From Achromobacter insolitus (GTDB lineage Bacteria > Pseudomonadota > Gammaproteobacteria > Burkholderiales > Burkholderiaceae_B), in assembly GCF_002209555.1 (NCBI RefSeq), contig NZ_NJIF01000004.1:62001-126000 (forward strand): a DNA stretch of 64,000 nt, in the 5' to 3' direction. Position 1 is the first letter of the stretch, and every line of letters starts with the position of its first letter. The notes under the pieces were generated by a model. It worked only from the letters and a program-made list of their open reading frames with translations, was not told the origin of the DNA and did not search any database. Made by a program: the position numbers and the translations under genes. Below are positions 43,203 to 52,424 of the stretch, piece after piece.

Positions 43203-43230
43203 CGGGTAGCGCTGCTGCCACCCGCCCAGC

Positions 43231-43259
43231 TTCCGGCCCCGCTGTTTCCGGGGCCGGAG
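43231..43259 (+). terminator. GC-rich hairpin after bioCD
   Basis: CCGGCCCCG (43233-43241) pairs with CGGGGCCGG (43249-43257) around a 7-nt loop; flanking TT/AG extend the stem. There is no T run, so it is a weak intrinsic terminator or an RNA 3'-end stabiliser. Confidence 0.55.
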
Positions 43260-43479
43260 CCGTTACGCATTCGTACAAAATAAATTCCGATGGCGCACAC
43301 CCGTCCCCCATGCGGATGGATACCGGCGCACCCGTTTTCCCGCCTACGGATGGCAACCAAAGTCTCATGCAACGCATGAACTCCCCGAGTGAAGGCGCTC
43401 GTTTTCTACACCTTTCAGCCACATCCAGATGGCGAAACCAAGGCCATGGCGGCCGCTTACTCCAGGCGCCGGCACGTTG

Positions 43480-43507
43480 TTGACTACTAACGCAACACAA
43501 CGATAAT
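43480..43507 (+). promoter_or_regulatory. Sigma70-type promoter of the giant gene pair
   Basis: TTGACT (43480-43485), a 16-bp spacer and GATAAT (43502-43507): 5/6 matches in both boxes. The predicted start is near 43514, about 79 nt before the ATG at 43593. Confidence 0.75.
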
Positions 43508-43592
43508 TTTCGCGACATTGGCAGTTCGATTCGCAGGTAGCTGGACGTGCAGGATTGAGTTCCTGGGTTTCCTTATTTGCAGGAGAACTGGC

Positions 43593-46500
43593 ATGGTCAC
43601 CAGAAGGCTGAACATTCCTGTCCTGGCCCCAAATCCCAACCGCAATTTCTTCGACGGCACCCGCCCCGGCCAAGCCGTGTTGCGGCCCGCCGATATGCTG
43701 GCCTTGCGGCTGGAACTGCGCAACCTGGCGGTAACGCCGGGCCAGCCGCCGCGACTGAAGAAAGCCGGCGACGGGGCCGCCACGCTGATCGTCCACTTCC
43801 CGCCGCAGTCGATCACCGAAGAGACGTTCTTCGAAAGGCCGCCCCCCGCCACCGCCAATCAGCCCCCGCCCCGCCCTACGCCGGACAAACCCGAGCCCGT
43901 CGGCGGCGTGGAAACCCCAACAGGCCCGCCCGTGCGCGCGCGCATTGCCGGAGAATCCCGGCTGGCCTTTGCCATTCCCGACGGCTTTGACGTGCCGTAC
44001 ACGCTGGAAGGCGTGCTGGCGGCGATGGAGACCCTGCCCCTGACGGTCGCCGCCAACGCGCGCCCGCCCGGCCCCAGCGCACCGCGCCTGGACCTGCGCG
44101 ACCTGTTCGACAAACGCATCGACAAACTCTCCCCAGTGCAACGCGCGGCGCTGTCGAGCTTCGCACTGCGCAATGTGCGCATCGCCACGCAGCAGAACGC
44201 GCCCGGCACCCTGTTGCTGCGCCAGGCCGGTGGCGCCGCCGGGCTGCGCGCACTGCGCCTGGGCGGCATGACGCCCGCCCGCGAATTGCAGCGCACCAGC
44301 GCCCTGATCGAGATTCTCCGGCGCGGACCCAAGCCTGCGCTGCCCGCCGCGCAGCAGACCGCGATCGAACTGCCGTGGCGCCTGATCCTCAGTCCGCATG
44401 CGGATGAGCGCTGGCGCCACGCCAAGGCCCCTGCGACTTCCACCGCCACCCAACATACCGAGCTCTGGCACACCCAATTGCTGGCCGCGCCGCCACAGGA
44501 CAGCGCGACGGCGCCACGGCCGGATGATGCCCGGCCCAACGTGCGCGCGGTGTGGGCGCTGGGAGGCGAAGGCACGACCAAGCCGATGCAATCGGCGTTT
44601 CCGGTGCCGACGCAAACCTATCTGCCCCAACCGAATACCTCGCCCTTCCGCATGCCGATGGACGACTTCGACCGCTACCAGATCGCGCACCTGTCGTCGA
44701 ACTTTTCCGTCGCCAACTACACGCCGCAGCCGGTGGAGGCCAGACTGTTGATGCTCTCGGCGCTGGGCGCCTGGCTGGACTCGCGCGGCAACTGGGACGC
44801 GCCCGGCCTATCGCTGGAGGAATGGACGCATCGAGGCGCCATGGGCCGCGACCACTACGTCCGCGTCGTCTACAAAGGCCTGCTGTTTCCTTTCGGCCAC
44901 CGCGCCGCGCTGGTGAAGGTCAGCGAACGCAAGTTCCACCGCGGCACGCCCGGCAATACTGCCTATCTGCGCCAGCGCCTGTTCATCATCGTGCGCCAGC
45001 GAGAACGCGTGTACGCGGACCCCGACCTGCAGGCACGCGACGACGCGGGCAATCTGATCTTCCTGCATCGCCAGATGCCGTTTTCCAGTGTGCGCATCCT
45101 CACCACCGTCACGCCCAGCCTGGATACGCCGACCTCCCCGGACAGCAATATCGAGGGCCTGGGACAATTGCTGTTCTGGCCGTGCATAGAGAAAATTCCC
45201 TTCCGCTTCGCCTGTTCGGCCACCGACATCGACGGTCGCAACGTCCAGTTCGACCTGCCCATGATCTTCATGGACGGCGGCCGCGCCTGTCCGCGCAAGC
45301 TCAGCGGCCAATGGCTGACGCCGGATTACGGCAATGCCGAAGCATTCGCGAAGCAGGCGCGGGATGCCTGGCGCAAACCCGAGGTAAGCGACCGCCGCAC
45401 CGCGCAGTTCAAGCAACAGCGGGTCACGCTGGCGTCTCCGCTCAAGCCCGGCGACACCGCCGCGCAAGTCGAGACTATCGAGTTCGACGGCCTCGTCGAT
45501 CCGGGCAATACCCAGCTACGCGCGTACAGCGACTCCCTGAACGGCCCCTTGTTCTATCCAGGCATCAAGCGCGCGGAAATCCGCATCGCCGCGCTGGCCG
45601 AACTGACGGGCAGCGACGGCAATAGTGTGCTCAGCTGGAACGACCACTACCTGCGCTTCGGATTCGATTCCGCCAACGTCGGCCAGGTCTTCGGCGACAT
45701 AGACGCCAACCCGGTCTACCGCGGCGATGCCGTGCTGAACTTCTCGGCGCAGGGCGACCGCGCCGGCGGATTCGTCCAGCCGAATCTGCGTCCCTCGGCC
45801 CTGTCGCGCATGGCCGGGCCGGTCAGCGGCAAGGTGACGGACTTCGTGGCCGGCAAGATGAACGGGCCGGACATCTTTCCCAAGGCTCTGTCCTCGGACC
45901 TGCCCCTGCCGCTGCTGTTTGGCTGCATCCCGCTGGGCGACGTCATCGAAGCCGTGTCCAATGCGGCGGGCACGCCGGAGCAGGTGCCGCGCTTCATCTC
46001 GGAAGCCTGTTCCCAGCTCGAGAGCCTGGTCAACGAAATGGGCCGGCTGTATGGCTTGGTGGCGGACCTGGCGCAACAGCCAGGGCGCATCGCCGAGGCT
46101 GCCTTGCAGGTGCTGAAAGCCACGCTGGAAGATTTGCTCAGCCAGGCCCAGGCTTACGCGCAAGACCTGGTCCAGGACGCGCGCGCGCGCCTCAACGGGC
46201 TGATGGCCGCGCTGGACGCTGTGCGCACGCAAGTCGCGCTGCTGGCCGGGCTGTCCTTCGACGCCGCGCCCGCCCTGCCCGGACTGCCCGCTGTGCTCAC
46301 CGCCGCGCGCAATGCGGCCCAGGCGCTGCGCACTGCGGCCGACACGCAGGTCAATGGCGTGGGCTTGCCCGATGGCCTGCGGCAATCGTTGCGCCAGGCG
46401 GCCAACACCGCCTTGACGCTGCTGGATGGCGTGGGCGTGGTGCCAGTGCTGCTGGTGCAAGGCAAGGCCTTGTACGACGCGCTGGATGCCGTGGTGGGCC

Positions 46501-47771
46501 ACCCCGACCAATTGGACGAACTATTCGCCGACGCCGCGACACTCACGCCCCGCCTTCAGGCCATCAAGGACGCGGTGCAGCCGCTATCCGACACCATCGG
46601 GACGGCGCGTTTGCTCGAAGGCGCGCCGCGCCAGATCGCGCAGACCGCCCTGCAAGCGGTCAAGCTGGCGGTGGACGCCGTGCTGGCAAGCGCCGAGCTG
46701 CTCGACTTGCTGACCGGTGACGAGCTCACCGTCCGCTTCGATTGGAACCCGATGATCAAAAGCTGGTCGATCAAGCCCGGCGACCCGCCCCTGTTCCGCG
46801 TCAACGATGCACGCGGCTTCCGGGTCGCCGTGGAGGCCCGCATCCGCAAGAACGGGCAAAGCGCGCCGAAGATATCGGTCGTCTGCTCCCTGAAGGACTT
46901 CGACCTGGTCCTGATCGCGCCCGCCAGCTTTCTGGAACTGAACTTCGAAAAGATCGAGTTCCGCATCGACACGGCCGCGAAGATGGACGTGGACGTGCTG
47001 CTGACCGACATCAAGTTCGTCGGTCCCTTGTCCTTCGTGGAGACATTGCGCGATCTGATTCCGCTGGATGGGTTCTCGGACCCGCCCTACCTGGACATCT
47101 CGGCCAAAGGCGTGGACGCGGGCTTCGACCTGGCCCTGCCGGCCGTGGCCATCGGCGTTTTCAACCTGTCCAACCTGAGCCTCGGCGCGGGCTTTACCAT
47201 ACCTTTCATCGGCCAGCCCCTCGCAGTGCGCTTTAATTTCTGCACGCGCGAGCAGCCCTTCAACCTGTCGGTATGCATGTTCGGCGGCGGCGGGTTTTTC
47301 GGCATCACGCTGGATCCCAGCGGCATCCAGCTCATGGAGGCCGCCTTCGAGTTCGGGGCCAGCGTGTCGGTGAACCTGGGGGTGGCCTCCGGCGGCGTGC
47401 ACGTCATGGCGGGCATCTATTTCCGCATGGAAAAGAATGCCTGCTCTCTGGCCGGCTACTTCCGCATGGGCGGCTGCGTCAGCGTGCTGGGCATCGTCAG
47501 CATTTCCATCGAAATCTACCTGGAACTGCGCTACGAGTTCGAAAGCGGCAAGTGCGCAGGACGCGCCACCATCACCGTCGAAATCGAAGTCTTCATGTTC
47601 TCGATGAGCGTGTCCCTGTCCTGCGAGCGCAAGTTCGCCGGGTCCAATGGCGATCCGGGCTTCCGCGACCTCATGGGACCGCGCCCCGACCTGCCGCTGG
47701 CGCAGGAACTGGCGCAGATCGATGACGACACCGCGTACGCCTGGCGCGAATACGCCGAAGCCTTTGCCTGA
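43593..47771 (+). CDS. Uncharacterised 1392-residue protein, first of a giant gene pair
   Basis: I do not recognise a named family. GGAGA precedes the ATG; there is no signal peptide. Regions: 1-650 is mixed alpha/beta with a Pro-rich linker (about 88-112) and many charged residues; 650-800 continues globular. About 800-1042 is almost all helix, Ala/Leu/Gln-rich with coiled-coil character (from ISEACSQLESLVNEMGRLYG). About 1046-1350 is a dense run of beta strands, with alternating hydrophobic residues and Gly/Cys-rich turns (MFGGGGFFGITLDPSG, VASGGVHVMAGIYFRME, VSISIEIYLELRYEF, VEIEVFMFSMSVSLS). This resembles a beta-barrel or beta-helix with an amphipathic face. The C-terminus is acidic. The next gene starts 9 nt later, so the two products are made together and probably act together. 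Confidence 0.8.
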   Translation: MVTRRLNIPVLAPNPNRNFFDGTRPGQAVLRPADMLALRLELRNLAVTPGQPPRLKKAGDGAATLIVHFPPQSITEETFFERPPPATANQPPPRPTPDKPEPVGGVETPTGPPVRARIAGESRLAFAIPDGFDVPYTLEGVLAAMETLPLTVAANARPPGPSAPRLDLRDLFDKRIDKLSPVQRAALSSFALRNVRIATQQNAPGTLLLRQAGGAAGLRALRLGGMTPARELQRTSALIEILRRGPKPALPAAQQTAIELPWRLILSPHADERWRHAKAPATSTATQHTELWHTQLLAAPPQDSATAPRPDDARPNVRAVWALGGEGTTKPMQSAFPVPTQTYLPQPNTSPFRMPMDDFDRYQIAHLSSNFSVANYTPQPVEARLLMLSALGAWLDSRGNWDAPGLSLEEWTHRGAMGRDHYVRVVYKGLLFPFGHRAALVKVSERKFHRGTPGNTAYLRQRLFIIVRQRERVYADPDLQARDDAGNLIFLHRQMPFSSVRILTTVTPSLDTPTSPDSNIEGLGQLLFWPCIEKIPFRFACSATDIDGRNVQFDLPMIFMDGGRACPRKLSGQWLTPDYGNAEAFAKQARDAWRKPEVSDRRTAQFKQQRVTLASPLKPGDTAAQVETIEFDGLVDPGNTQLRAYSDSLNGPLFYPGIKRAEIRIAALAELTGSDGNSVLSWNDHYLRFGFDSANVGQVFGDIDANPVYRGDAVLNFSAQGDRAGGFVQPNLRPSALSRMAGPVSGKVTDFVAGKMNGPDIFPKALSSDLPLPLLFGCIPLGDVIEAVSNAAGTPEQVPRFISEACSQLESLVNEMGRLYGLVADLAQQPGRIAEAALQVLKATLEDLLSQAQAYAQDLVQDARARLNGLMAALDAVRTQVALLAGLSFDAAPALPGLPAVLTAARNAAQALRTAADTQVNGVGLPDGLRQSLRQAANTALTLLDGVGVVPVLLVQGKALYDALDAVVGHPDQLDELFADAATLTPRLQAIKDAVQPLSDTIGTARLLEGAPRQIAQTALQAVKLAVDAVLASAELLDLLTGDELTVRFDWNPMIKSWSIKPGDPPLFRVNDARGFRVAVEARIRKNGQSAPKISVVCSLKDFDLVLIAPASFLELNFEKIEFRIDTAAKMDVDVLLTDIKFVGPLSFVETLRDLIPLDGFSDPPYLDISAKGVDAGFDLALPAVAIGVFNLSNLSLGAGFTIPFIGQPLAVRFNFCTREQPFNLSVCMFGGGGFFGITLDPSGIQLMEAAFEFGASVSVNLGVASGGVHVMAGIYFRMEKNACSLAGYFRMGGCVSVLGIVSISIEIYLELRYEFESGKCAGRATITVEIEVFMFSMSVSLSCERKFAGSNGDPGFRDLMGPRPDLPLAQELAQIDDDTAYAWREYAEAFA

Positions 47772-47780
47772 GGAGCGTCC

Positions 47781-50700
47781 ATGGCCAAGCAAACGATAGT
47801 CTGGACCGTGATTCCCAACGGCCGCGTGCCTGCGGGCGCCGACGCCGGCCGGCTGCGCGTATCCATCGTGGCCTCGCCGCGCCTCACGCCGCAGGCCGTG
47901 AACGAACAGCAGCTGCACGCCTTCGCTGACTGGGTCAACTGGCCGCGCACGCTGGAACGGGTGCGCTTCGTGCTGAATACCGGTGTAGCGGAAATCGAGC
48001 TGGAGCCTCAGGCTCAGGCCGACGCCGCGCTATGGGAACGGCTGCTGCCCAAGACCACGCCCGTGTCGGGTTTCGTGTTCCGCGACATGAGCAAGGTCAA
48101 TCTATTTTCATATTCGGTGGCCGGCGTGCTGGGGCTGACCCGCAAACACTACGGCAGGCTGGCCGTGCAAGCCACGGGGACGCCGCCCACCCTGCTGCCG
48201 TGGCGCGACGCGCATCCCGGCCTGAAGGACATGCTGGGCGACTGCGGCACGCGCACGACTTTCATTTCGCTAGGCGACCGGCGTGTCGAGATGCCGCTAC
48301 CCGGCTTCGACCGATTCTTCGACGACGGCGGGGACGGCCCCGAGCGCGTGCTGCGCAGCCAGGTCTATGGTCCCCACAGCATCTACGAAGGCCGCGCAGC
48401 GGCGCCGGGGGTCAACGCCGAGGGCAATCCGCAGCCCGTCGTCAGCTTTCCGCTGCGCGCTTTGCCCACTCGCTGGAATGACGGCGGGCTAGCCAACGCC
48501 GACCAGAATCTGATGAGGCAATGGAACTCGCAGGCCGAGTACACCCTGTTTCAGGCCAACCGTTTCTACCGCCGCGACCCGCCCACCGCGCAGCAGCAGG
48601 GCATGCGCCGGCCAAGCGGCGAGAACGTGCCCGCCCCGCCCGCCATCCCGGAGATGGATTTCCACGCCATCGTCGCGTCCTATGGCGACTATCCCGCGCT
48701 GCTGCGCCAATTGGGGCTGGTCATCGACTGCCTCTTGCCCGCGGACTCGCCGCTGGACCAGCAACTGGCGGCGGCGCCTGCCGCGCAGGGCCGCTTCTTC
48801 CTGACCCTGCGCTGGGAAGACGGGCACGACGCCGGCGACGACGCTTGTCCCGCTACCGCGTGGGCCGGCGACCAGGAACGCTTCACCACGCGCCCACGCA
48901 ACCCTTCCGATCACGAACGCGGCATGCTCAAGCTGCGCCGCGCCGACGACAGCTGGAACCTGCTGGAGCCGCGAACCCCCTTCGACGTCTACCAGGTCGA
49001 TCCCGACGGCGCGGCCCTGAAAACCGTGGACTTCGTACTGACTGCCCAGAACCTGATCGCCAAGAGCCTGGCGCTGGGCGCCGACGGTGCGGTGACGTAC
49101 ACCACGGGCGACAAACAGGGCGTGGCAGCGCTGCGTTCCGGCGGCCTGGGCGTGGCGCGGCGCGGCCGCGCTTGGGAAGTCGCGCAGAACGCGGCAGCCG
49201 CTGCCCTGAAGAATGCCGCCCTGTCGGGCGCGCCCGGCAGCATCGTGCTCTACGCCGAAGACCTGTTGCGCGGCTATCGCGTGGACGCGCAGCCGCAGGT
49301 GCCCGGCGACCCGCAACGATGGCGTTCGCTATGCCAGCGCTCCGGCACCTACCGATGCACGGATGGGGGAGCTCCCTTGCAGCTGCCCGATGACGAGGGC
49401 TATGTCAAAGGCGCGTCCACCAGCGGCGGCGCGCAACCCGACGACCACTACCTGCACGAATCCCTGTTCCGCTGGACCGGCTGGAGCCTGGTGGCGCCGC
49501 GCCCGGGACGCACCTTGCGCGACCGCGTCGACCCGGCCAGCGGCGTGCAGGGTGAAGTGCCGGAGGATGTGCAGGACGTGGCCACGGAAAAAGGCAATGG
49601 CCTGGCGGTGAGCTTCGCCGCGGCCAAGGGCAGCCTGCCGCGCCTGCGCTTCGGCATGCCTTACCGCTTCCGCGCGCGCCTGGTGGACCTGGCCGGCAAC
49701 AGTCTCGCGCATGATGATCCTTCGCTGGAACGGGACGGCAACGCCACGCAGCCGGTCGTCTACTGGCGTTTCGAACCGGTGGATCCGCCGGCGCTGGTGC
49801 AGCGGGCCCGCTTGAGCGAAGGCGAATCGCTGGAACGCATGGTGATCCGCAGCAACACCGGCCTGGACCCCGCGGCGTATCGCGACAGCCCGGACTTCAA
49901 GCATGCCCGTCAGCAGCCAGCCTCCAAGGACTTCGAGTATCCCGCGGTCAATGAACGCCACGTAGTGCCGCCCAAGGCGTCGCAGCTGCAATGCGAAACG
50001 CATGGCCTGTTCGACGCAATGATGGGCAGCCCCGCCGGCATCAAGCAGGCCTATGAGATAGCGGCCCGCGATGCGGCCACGCTGTACGACGAGGGACCGG
50101 GCTCAGAGATAGAACTGGTGACGCCGCAGGCGCTGAAAGAGGTGGCCACTACCGAGCGCGTGCCTCCACAATTGCCCAACCCCGAGCATCCCACGGGCGA
50201 ACGACTGGCCGCCGGGCAGTATGTGATCCACCGGGAGGCCCAGGTACTCACGCCCTATCTGCCGGATCCCGCCGCAGGCGGTATCGCCCTGCGCGCCCAG
50301 CCCGGTCACGCCTTGCCCGGTGTCAGCGGCCCCAAGGTGCTGGGCCCCAGCGCCGTCATCGCGCAGACTCCCGCACAGGAACTGGTGCTGCTGGTGGCGC
50401 ACGCGGCGAAATGGCCGGACAGCCTGGGCTTGCGCATTGTGCTGGAAGAACGCCGCGCCACCTTGACCGACCCACCCTGCTCGGAGAGTTACCCCGACGA
50501 CGGCACGCCGGCCTGGGACGAGGCCAAGCGGATCCTGACCTTCTTTCTGCCCAAGGGCCGCATCGCCCGCCTGCGCTACTCCAGCTTCGTGAACCCCGGG
50601 CTGGCCAACACCTTCGGCATCCCCTCCTGGGCCAGCAATGAAGGCGAACGTGCCACGCTGCGTCTGGCGTCGGTGCTGGGCGGCTGCTGGATGGTCACCC

Positions 50701-52424
50701 CCTACCGGCCGCTGGTGCTGGTTCACGCGACGCAGCAGCCGATATGCGACCCCGTGCTGATGCTGGCCGAAGAACCCCAACGCCAGCCGGGCGACGCTCA
50801 TGCGGACCTGTACGCCCGCGTGCGCCTGCACGGTCCCACTACCGGCAAGATTGAAATAGAGGCGGATTGGAACGAATGGGTGGACGACTTGCTCAAGCCC
50901 CGCCCCGAACGGCATGCCGGCCACGGCGTGCTCGCCGAGATTCCCCTGTCGGAAAACTACGCCAACCTTTTCAGCCTGAGCAACGCGGTAAAGGAACAGT
51001 TGAACGCGGACGGGAAGCTGCGCGCGCGGGGAGATCGCCACGAGTTCGGCGACACCCGTTTTCGCCTCATCCGCTACCGTCTTCGCGCTACCACCCGGTT
51101 CCGCGAATACCTGCCGCCATCGCTCTACGAACAGGTGGATAAGGTCACGCGGCTGGGGCCGGTCGCCGACGGGCCCCAGGTCGAAGCGGGTGCGGACGAC
51201 GATCCTGGCGCGCCGGTGCTCAGACGCGACGGCACGGCGCAAAACACCGTCGTGCGCGCCAGCGCGCCGCCGGACGCCCCCGTTCTCACTTATGTCATGC
51301 CGACCTTCCGCTGGCAGGAAACGGCAGGCACCGGGAAACTGGACGTGACACGGCTGGGCAACGGTTTGCGGGTCTGGCTGGAACGGCCCTGGTTCTCCTC
51401 CGGCGACGGCGAACTGCTGGGCGTGGTGATCTATGGCGACGGCCAGAATTTCACCGACATCCCCGACCGTCTGACGCCGCTGGTCACGCAGTGGGGCATG
51501 GACCCGCTATGGGAGACGCCCCAGCCCAAACACAAGACACGCGTGTCGGACTTCTCCGCGCGCGTCGCGGACGAACAAGTCTATCTGCAGGAAATCCCGG
51601 CCCAACCGGTCCACGTGGTCGGACACCGCGTCCGCTGGAGCGAGGAACGCGCGCGCTGGTACTGCGATATCGAACTCGACCCGGGTCGCACCTACATGCC
51701 TTTCGTGCGCCTGGCGCTTGCGCGCTACCAGCCCAACGCCATCGCGTCGGCCAAGCTGTCGCGAGTCGTGCTGGCCGAGTTTTCCCAAGTGCTGCCGCGC
51801 CGCCGCGCGGTGTTCGAGCAAAAACGCGGCAGGCTGACATTCAGCCTGCGCGGCGTCGTCCCCGCGCATGGGCCGATGAAGTTCCCCCTGGATTCCGAAT
51901 ACCTGAATATTTCCTTCATTCCCGGCATCGGCCAGACCGCCGAGAGCGGCCGCAATCGCGTGGAACTGGTGCTGCAGACGCGAGACCCGGCATTGGACAG
52001 CGACCTGGCCTGGAGCGACGCCGCGGTGCTGGCATCGGGCCTGCTGGATCCTTCCGGACCGGCGCCCCAGCCCGCCGGCCCGGGCCCCATTCTCATAGAC
52101 CGCATGCGCGAGCTGCCGATTCTTGAGACCGCCACGCCCACGACGCTTGCCGACCTGTCGCGCCTGGGCGGCGTGGTCGTCGGCCCGGTAGTGCGTTTTC
52201 CCCCGGTGCTAGAAGGTCCCATCCTGGGCGAGCTGCTGGATCCCGTCATCTGGACCGCCAGCGTCGCGCTTCCCGACAGCGGCGGCAAGCCGGCGCGCGT
52301 CGCGGTGCGCGAGTACGAGCGCTACTACACCGACAACACCGTGCCCGAACGGCGCGCCGGCGCCACGCAGCAGCGCCGCGTGGTGGAGGAGCGGCTGGTG
52401 TACACGGCGTTCTTTGCGCTCTAA
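47781..52424 (+). CDS. Uncharacterised 1547-residue protein, second of a giant gene pair
   Basis: I do not recognise a named family. It starts 9 nt after the 1392-residue gene with GAGGAG before the ATG. There is no signal peptide, membrane helix or obvious enzyme motif. It is mostly beta-rich globular, with repeated Arg/Trp/Tyr-rich blocks such as YGDYPALLRQLGLVIDCLLP (near 310), FGMPYRFRARLVDLAGNSL (near 625), FVRLALARYQPNAI (near 1307) and a conserved-looking end YERYYTDNTVPERR...VVEERLVYTAFFAL. The blocks RARLVDLAGNS and FVRLALARYQP look like structural beta-sandwich elements. Tight coupling to the previous gene implies a two-component assembly. Cytoplasmic or non-classically released; unknown. 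Confidence 0.8.
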   Translation: MAKQTIVWTVIPNGRVPAGADAGRLRVSIVASPRLTPQAVNEQQLHAFADWVNWPRTLERVRFVLNTGVAEIELEPQAQADAALWERLLPKTTPVSGFVFRDMSKVNLFSYSVAGVLGLTRKHYGRLAVQATGTPPTLLPWRDAHPGLKDMLGDCGTRTTFISLGDRRVEMPLPGFDRFFDDGGDGPERVLRSQVYGPHSIYEGRAAAPGVNAEGNPQPVVSFPLRALPTRWNDGGLANADQNLMRQWNSQAEYTLFQANRFYRRDPPTAQQQGMRRPSGENVPAPPAIPEMDFHAIVASYGDYPALLRQLGLVIDCLLPADSPLDQQLAAAPAAQGRFFLTLRWEDGHDAGDDACPATAWAGDQERFTTRPRNPSDHERGMLKLRRADDSWNLLEPRTPFDVYQVDPDGAALKTVDFVLTAQNLIAKSLALGADGAVTYTTGDKQGVAALRSGGLGVARRGRAWEVAQNAAAAALKNAALSGAPGSIVLYAEDLLRGYRVDAQPQVPGDPQRWRSLCQRSGTYRCTDGGAPLQLPDDEGYVKGASTSGGAQPDDHYLHESLFRWTGWSLVAPRPGRTLRDRVDPASGVQGEVPEDVQDVATEKGNGLAVSFAAAKGSLPRLRFGMPYRFRARLVDLAGNSLAHDDPSLERDGNATQPVVYWRFEPVDPPALVQRARLSEGESLERMVIRSNTGLDPAAYRDSPDFKHARQQPASKDFEYPAVNERHVVPPKASQLQCETHGLFDAMMGSPAGIKQAYEIAARDAATLYDEGPGSEIELVTPQALKEVATTERVPPQLPNPEHPTGERLAAGQYVIHREAQVLTPYLPDPAAGGIALRAQPGHALPGVSGPKVLGPSAVIAQTPAQELVLLVAHAAKWPDSLGLRIVLEERRATLTDPPCSESYPDDGTPAWDEAKRILTFFLPKGRIARLRYSSFVNPGLANTFGIPSWASNEGERATLRLASVLGGCWMVTPYRPLVLVHATQQPICDPVLMLAEEPQRQPGDAHADLYARVRLHGPTTGKIEIEADWNEWVDDLLKPRPERHAGHGVLAEIPLSENYANLFSLSNAVKEQLNADGKLRARGDRHEFGDTRFRLIRYRLRATTRFREYLPPSLYEQVDKVTRLGPVADGPQVEAGADDDPGAPVLRRDGTAQNTVVRASAPPDAPVLTYVMPTFRWQETAGTGKLDVTRLGNGLRVWLERPWFSSGDGELLGVVIYGDGQNFTDIPDRLTPLVTQWGMDPLWETPQPKHKTRVSDFSARVADEQVYLQEIPAQPVHVVGHRVRWSEERARWYCDIELDPGRTYMPFVRLALARYQPNAIASAKLSRVVLAEFSQVLPRRRAVFEQKRGRLTFSLRGVVPAHGPMKFPLDSEYLNISFIPGIGQTAESGRNRVELVLQTRDPALDSDLAWSDAAVLASGLLDPSGPAPQPAGPGPILIDRMRELPILETATPTTLADLSRLGGVVVGPVVRFPPVLEGPILGELLDPVIWTASVALPDSGGKPARVAVREYERYYTDNTVPERRAGATQQRRVVEERLVYTAFFAL

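What the first reader, a model, noticed from the sequence alone, without database searches (positions are those of the whole stretch)
43593..52424. Two tightly coupled giant genes of unknown family: candidate undescribed system
An 8.8-kb block carries two genes of 1392 and 1547 codons, 9 nt apart, behind one good promoter, between a biotin operon and a catabolic operon. Neither product has a signal peptide, membrane helix, P-loop, protease, nuclease or toxin motif that I can see. The first combines a globular N-terminus, a ~240-residue helical coiled-coil-like part and a ~300-residue dense beta region with Gly-rich turns. The second is a long beta-rich scaffold. Cells seldom keep nearly 3000 codons without a role, and the reading frames are clean. 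A two-component structural or surface-binding assembly is possible.
Basis: partly seen in the sequence, partly recalled or inferred. Interest (0 to 1): 0.82.

Follow-up and report, generated by a model that had tools for sequence, protein, structure and literature searches.

The report
Giant gene pair of unknown function
Two very large neighbouring bacterial genes belong to an undescribed family that travels as a pair, and distant versions carry an export tag and sometimes sit beside secreted protein-cutting enzymes, which suggests a new kind of two-part exported protein assembly.

Summary
Confirmed. A (43593-47771, 1392 codons) and B (47781-52424, 1547 codons) are intact, 9 nt apart and under purifying selection (dN/dS 0.09-0.26). 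No family in Pfam, NCBIfam, PHROGs, PADLOC or PDB sequences fits. Of 56 stretches examined, 48 (46 distinct records) hold both genes, A always directly upstream of B; the other 8 are cut by contig ends or too divergent for the B profile.
New: one diverged group has a twin-arginine (Tat)-like signal on A in 12 of 12 loci with an intact N-terminus, plus 2 loci outside it; control 108 of 1510 ORFs. B shows no N-terminal signal. Two of these 12 loci encode TatA just downstream; 5 of 12 have a signal-bearing protease gene behind B, from four families. The window's clade lacks both. In Achromobacter the pair is accessory (11 of 43 species).
Best reading: A and B form one giant complex, once exported by Tat with B hitch-hiking and working with a swappable secreted hydrolase; the window's form is signal-less. 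Pairing is shown; complex, export and function are inferred. Structure models gave no believable fold match.

The parts
43203..43592 (+). Upstream region that came with the pair (GC 0.579 against 0.66 for the window); holds one sigma-70-like match at 43480-43507
   Evidence: Not present in the empty sites of the 5 Achromobacter genomes opened; promoter scan 1 found, 0.8 expected; GC
43593..47771 (+). Gene A, 1392 codons, no family
44871..45707 (+). A residues about 427-705: best-modelled globular domain (pLDDT mostly 80-95, with a dip near A 446-459)
   Evidence: AlphaFold2
45933..46718 (+). A residues about 781-1042: helical region; the spacer here is the part whose length varies most among relatives (near 0 to 976 residues between core and C-domain where it could be computed)
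   Evidence: AlphaFold2; spacer lengths for 17 of 53 rows; domain gaps
46722..47633 (+). A residues about 1044-1347: well-conserved C-terminal beta domain (GGGGFFG motif), long alternating strands
   Evidence: (low pLDDT here)
47772..47783 (+). A-B junction: 9-nt gap with GAGGAG partly overlapping A's end, then ATG of B
   Evidence: (junction sequence)
47781..52424 (+). Gene B, 1547 codons, no family
50235..51857 (+). B residues about 819-1359: better-modelled beta-rich half (pLDDT mostly 65-90) with the invariant WYCDIELD block

Best explanation
A and B are the two subunits of one giant complex. In the diverged relatives A bears a Tat signal, so A folds in the cytoplasm, binds B (which has no N-terminal signal) and carries it across the membrane as a hitch-hiker. 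There the complex works in the envelope or outside the cell together with a separately exported partner encoded behind B, in several loci a protease of an interchangeable family. The helical part of A is an adjustable-length spacer between a head and the conserved C-terminal beta domain. The window's clade is a reduced form: same two subunits, no signal, no accessory enzyme; it acts in the cytoplasm or leaves by another route. Shown: pairing, order, selection, accessory insertion, Tat-like signals, and tatA and protease genes beside the pair in some relatives. Inferred: complex formation, hitch-hiking, enzyme partnership, site of action.
For: Pairing: A directly upstream of B in 48 of 56 stretches (46 distinct records), other 8 cut or too divergent. 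Tat-like signal: 12 of 12 intact A N-termini of one group plus L022 and L038, against 108 of 1510 control ORFs; 6 of these 12 (G606, G645, L077-L080) were found after the signal had been noticed. B: 0 of 48 B frames has a hydrophobic start and the 3 twin-arginine positives lie at residues 134-178 of the open frame. TatA_B_E genes behind B in L040 and behind its protease gene in G274 (E 2.4e-9 and 2.2e-8). Proteases behind B: trypsin in G246 (53-residue match), astacin in L042, M35 in G274 and L077, C70 in G606, all above Pfam's cut-off; those of G246 and L042 overlap B's stop codon. Hitch-hiker export is an established Tat mode (PMC10924467, passages seen). Purifying selection on both genes. 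Control: none of 10 same-strand genes behind B in signal-less loci is a protease.
Against: The window's own A has no Tat or Sec signal and no enzyme beside it, so the export model is borrowed from relatives with 22-29% identity to it in the C-terminal domain (33 and 41% for L038 and L022; 8 of the 14 signal-bearing rows were in that alignment). The NCBIfam Tat model accepted 1 of 10 N-termini tested. Seven of 12 loci show no protease near B; the signal peptides of the neighbours rest on a hydropathy rule or the eye. A patatin and a phosphoesterase also turn up behind B in signal-less loci. The group's deepest fork has modest support and long branches. The pairs of G307, G535, G559 and G569 and the rows L020, L021, L039, L041 and L082 show no signal either. 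A plus B would be very large for Tat. No structure match supports any assembly; A against PDB could not be run.
Confidence: 0.45

Rival explanations
1. Protease as processor or target: A and B are a precursor or a protease trap. The co-encoded protease either matures the giant proteins or is what they bind and inhibit, as macroglobulins do.
For: Proteases of four families recur behind B; the nearest Foldseek hits of the B model include Salmonella alpha-2-macroglobulin and complement C3/C5.
Against: Those hits have query TM-scores of 0.05-0.10 and rmsd of 25-41, so they are no fold match; the window's clade keeps both genes without any protease beside them; no thioester or bait region was tested.
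Confidence: 0.2
2. Injection or toxin-delivery particle: A is a long shaft with a membrane-active beta end, B a head, the protease or phospholipase the cargo.
For: Variable-length helical part and strongly alternating long strands at A's C-terminus (mean odd-even hydropathy difference 3.35 against 1.80 in A's core); hydrolase genes nearby; weak tail-type names: phrog_184 baseplate hub E 0.17 and a tail protein as best viral Foldseek hit (E 8.4e-6 but TM 0.06, rmsd 60).
Against: No family match to tail, injection or toxin-complex models; no phage or viral-contig relatives; the enzymes carry their own signal-like N-termini; the C-terminal model has low pLDDT.
Confidence: 0.15
3. The signals are incidental: AB is a cytoplasmic scaffold in all clades and the twin-arginine runs are not used.
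For: Signal-less rows outnumber the others in the tree (37 of 51, of which G581, L081 and L035 are cut or split at the N-terminus); the NCBIfam Tat model accepts 1 of 10.
Against: 12 of 12 in one group against 7% in controls, tatA in two of the loci, signal-bearing neighbours.
Confidence: 0.15
4. Selfish or decaying accessory DNA with no host role.
For: Patchy distribution (11 of 43 Achromobacter genomes, 5 of 398 Pseudomonadota genomes by B), clean insertion, plasmid relatives.
Against: dN/dS 0.09-0.26 over nearly 3000 codons; no other gene, hence no mobility gene, in the insert.
Confidence: 0.05

Closest known systems
Tat hitch-hiker complexes (periplasmic NiFe hydrogenases, formate dehydrogenases; PMC10924467, passages)
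   Same: Two subunits, signal on only one of them (in the Tat-signal group)
   Different: No redox or cofactor family found in A or B; much larger; the window form has no signal
Tc (toxin complex) proteins (recalled, not fetched)
   Same: Giant multi-gene products with a helical shaft, a beta-rich partner and a variable enzymatic part
   Different: No such Pfam match in A or B; here the enzyme is a separate gene with its own signal-like start; no homology found
Bacterial alpha-2-macroglobulins
   Same: Large, beta-rich, linked to proteases
   Different: Foldseek match not significant as a fold (query TM 0.08); no sequence match; always paired with A
AsmA/TamB-type lipid-bridge proteins (recalled)
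   Same: Long amphipathic beta meander, envelope location
   Different: No Pfam match; paired with B; helical spacer

Membership tests
Any Pfam / NCBIfam / PHROGs / PADLOC family | Profile match above cut-off to A or B | tested here: not met
   (best: SAM_GIDA_C E 0.15, phrog_184 baseplate hub E 0.17)
Family with a solved structure | Sequence match to a PDB chain | tested here: not met
   (A best E 0.69; B none up to E 1)
Tat-exported proteins | Twin-arginine signal on A of the window | tested here: not met
Tat-exported proteins | Twin-arginine signal on A of the diverged group | tested here: inconclusive
   12 of 12 intact N-termini by a home-made test, control 108 of 1510; but TIGR01409 accepts 1 of 10 tested
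Tat-exported proteins | Export shown to depend on TatC | not testable with these tools
   needs a mutant
Tc toxin complex | Tc-type domains (names recalled) detectable by Pfam | tested here: not met
   no such match in window A/B at E up to 1, nor in 9 large relatives at E up to 0.1
Phage tail or contractile injection system | Homologues in phages; sheath, tube, baseplate genes nearby | tested here: not met
   no phage record, no IMG/VR contig; no such gene noticed in the neighbourhoods by eye, apart from a phage-type lysozyme near G246
Alpha-2-macroglobulin | MG-domain fold plus thioester | tested here: inconclusive
   Foldseek hit 4u48 E 4.9e-5 but query TM 0.08, rmsd 41; thioester not tested

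The most novel reading that the evidence does not exclude
A previously unknown class of exported two-protein giant assembly: a Tat-delivered A-B particle with a length-adjustable helical stalk and an amphipathic beta end that presents or delivers an interchangeable protease or phospholipase, of which the Achromobacter pair is a stripped, signal-less form.
Probability: 0.22. Interest if true: 0.9.

Novelty: categorically new. Interest (0 to 1): 0.72.

Why it matters
About 9 kb of conserved coding sequence, scattered over Proteobacteria and Actinobacteria, has no name. If the export model holds, A plus B would be (to my recollection, no call) among the largest Tat cargoes proposed and a new way to field secreted proteases. 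Even without a function, a constant two-gene pair with a signal-bearing group, tatA genes beside two of them and changing protease neighbours gives concrete, testable handles.

Tried and rejected
Family and PDB-sequence look-ups of A and B gave nothing. A-B homology to each other: none. Viral origin: no relatives in phages or IMG/VR. Foldseek: the B model against PDB had 6 hits at E up to 0.001, all scattered beta-rich or axonemal proteins with query TM of 0.06-0.08; the A model against viral models had 3 hits at E up to 0.001 with TM up to 0.09 and rmsd 35-60, not believed. The G287 hit (31 residues, in a 680-aa ORF that reads like a carboxylase by eye; E 3.6e-6 with the full A profile in the small search) is taken as chance. 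B of the remotest pairs (G307, G535, G559, G569, L081) against the B profile: collinear segments but probability 3% at best, so left open. Literature: DUF6603, a look-alike name from memory, is in no held paper; the listings (at most 10 rows each, open PMC subset) showed no paper on this pair. PMC1550398 was looked at for Tat cargo size (one passage) and gave none.

Full report
Observation. The two genes are present as described. A runs 43593-47771, B 47781-52424; the gap is 9 nt and GAGGAG precedes B's ATG. Both frames are under purifying selection against six Achromobacter relatives (dN/dS A 0.10-0.26, B 0.09-0.24). GC (0.667 and 0.682 against 0.66 for the window) gives no sign of recent foreign origin. 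The promoter is a single consensus match where chance gives 0.8.

No known family. Window A and B have no match in Pfam, NCBIfam, PHROGs or PADLOC at useful E-values and none among PDB sequences. Nine large diverged relatives (5 B, 4 A) scanned with Pfam at E up to 0.1 gave no family except sub-cut-off coiled-coil look-alikes for the helical part of L022. Where the public records list these genes they are called hypothetical proteins (the records carry no annotation there). A and B are not alike.

Distribution and pairing. One scan of GTDB contigs with B gave 22 loci, among them Achromobacter, Rhizobium, Nitrosovibrio, Elioraea, Roseobacter and Mycobacterium. Plasmid records added Cupriavidus, Diaphorobacter, Streptomyces, Ruegeria, Agrobacterium and Sinorhizobium. 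Genome samples gave 5 of 398 Pseudomonadota with B and, with the A C-terminal profile, 7 of 398 (one of these, G287, I take as chance), 6 of 151, 4 of 149 (again counting G287), 3 of 367 and 9 of 299; these counts include the window's own or the centre genomes and overlap. The other 8 are L013, L014 and L023, whose contigs begin inside B; L081, whose contig begins inside A; and G307, G535, G559 and G569, where A is recognised only or mainly by its C-terminal domain and is followed at once by a 1928-2199 aa ORF that the B profile does not match.

Accessory insertion. In Achromobacter 11 of 43 genomes, one a species, carry B. In five of the genomes without it, the only ones I opened, the bioD block is followed after 22-119 bp by the CoA-transferase gene that flanks B in the window. 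The insert is thus about 9.25 kb: a 390-bp upstream region, A and B, with no other gene. L016 carries the pair about 6-7 kb away from the window's site, between an alcohol-dehydrogenase-like and an isocitrate-lyase-like gene, and L005 has it between the same two neighbours (names by eye), so the site is not fixed.

Architecture. Profile blocks show A as an N part, a core, a helical stretch of very variable length and a well-conserved C-terminal domain. The spacer between core and C-domain could be computed for 17 of 53 rows: 109 and 104 residues in L021 and L022, near zero in L020, L038, L039, L041, L042 and L082, and 528-976 residues in nine rows of the signal-bearing group. AlphaFold2 on A 200-1392 (20 sequences) gave mean pLDDT 58, pTM 0.40, with a well-modelled domain at about A 427-705 and helices at 781-1041; the C-terminal beta region is drawn as long antiparallel strands but with low confidence. 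Those strands alternate strongly in hydropathy (13 strands of 7 residues or more, mean odd-even difference 3.35; 8 core strands 1.80; 15 B strands 2.21). B 260-1400 (23 sequences) gave mean pLDDT 62, pTM 0.51, the second half mostly 65-90. Foldseek of B against PDB found no believable match (query TM 0.05-0.10, target TM up to 0.27 in the 50 rows shown), nor did A against viral models. A against PDB could not be run.

Tat-like signals. Long A proteins of a diverged group start with twin arginines (SRRxFLG-like) followed by an uncharged hydrophobic run. With a simple test of my own, 15 of 53 A rows are positive; one (L086) lies before the likely start and is discounted. The control is 108 of 1510 other long open frames of the same loci, real genes and chance frames together. 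On a tree of 51 C-terminal domains 12 of the 14 fall in a 13-row group whose only other row, G581, has no N-terminus; the 12 rows without L042 form a fork of support 100/99, the fork with L042 has 90/55, and many branches are long. L022 and L038 lie outside. The label needs 4 changes (shuffled mean about 12.5). The pattern fits an old signal lost on the way to the window's clade, but rooting and long branches leave this open. Against it: NCBIfam's Tat model accepts only L040 of the 10 N-termini tested. For it: L040 encodes a TatA_B_E protein right behind B, and G274 one behind its protease gene. B has no such signal: of 48 B frames none has a hydrophobic start, and the 3 twin-arginine positives (two of them the same plasmid) lie at residues 134-178 of the open frame.

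The gene behind B. Of the 12 loci of that group, 5 have a protease gene with a signal-like start on the same strand, beginning within about 2 kb of B: trypsin in G246 (a 53-residue match) and astacin in L042 (both overlap B's stop codon), M35 in G274 and, as fourth gene, in L077, C70 in G606. The others have a lipoprotein-like protein and then one with a VWA7_N match just under the cut-off (G259), small proteins with a signal-like or hydrophobic start and no family above cut-off (L079, L080, G335, G645), TatA (L040), or nothing close (L078). L077 also has a zinc-dependent phospholipase C gene upstream. As control, 10 same-strand genes behind B in signal-less loci were scanned: GGDEF, S4, an NAD-binding dehydrogenase, carbonic anhydrase, patatin, GntP permease, thymidylate synthase, Dus, phosphoesterase and one without family, no protease; (25 loci) many have no same-strand gene close by, and genes further off were not scanned. 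The sample is small and was not drawn at random, and signal starts were judged by a hydropathy rule or by eye.

Mechanism. Shown: constant pairing and order, selection, accessory status, Tat-like signals on one partner only, tatA and protease genes beside the pair in some relatives. Inferred: A and B bind each other; B crosses the membrane by hitch-hiking, an established Tat mode (PMC10924467, passages seen); the enzyme works with the complex; the helical part sets a distance. For the window itself, no export signal and no enzyme were found, so its site of action is unknown.

Novelty. The listings of my searches showed no paper on the pair (open PMC subset) and no family model matches, so I rate the system as categorically new, with the reservation that InterPro, UniProt and AlphaFold DB were not available and a deeper fold comparison could still place it.

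Noticed in passing
L003 1-9990: Achromobacter pulmonis ANB-1 carries partial copies of the bioD - A 5' part (A fragments of 234 and 662 aa) before the full A, a sign of local duplication at the insertion point.
   Followed up: no
L035 7637-11981; L079 16278-21816: A in Rhizobium ruizarguesonis TP23 and B in Agrobacterium vitis CG957 are each split over two overlapping frames; described only.
   Followed up: no
L047 and L031 (genome G246): Behind the pair and the trypsin-like gene lies a run with phage-lysozyme/M23, Tubulin_2, two caspase-like C14 and a CHAT protein, a mix reminiscent of conflict systems.
   Followed up: partly
L079 21887-30972: In Agrobacterium vitis the pair and one small gene are followed by dpdE-dpdH genes; L078 and L080 lie near restriction- or methylase-type genes.
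   Followed up: no
L005 and L016 against the window: Within Achromobacter the pair sits at two different sites, about 6-7 kb apart where both flanks are seen (L016), and the two site groups fall apart in the protein tree.
   Followed up: partly
L036 4171-7645: In Cupriavidus metallidurans CH34 the genes just upstream look like DUF692/DUF2063 and an ECF sigma/anti-sigma pair (names recalled by eye, no call).
   Followed up: no
L033 6456-8135: Behind the M35 and tatA genes of G274 lies a 559-aa DUF4403 protein with a lipoprotein-like start.
   Followed up: no
L081 7157-8938: In the remote pair of G852 the gene behind the B-like ORF has an Extensin-like_C domain.
   Followed up: no
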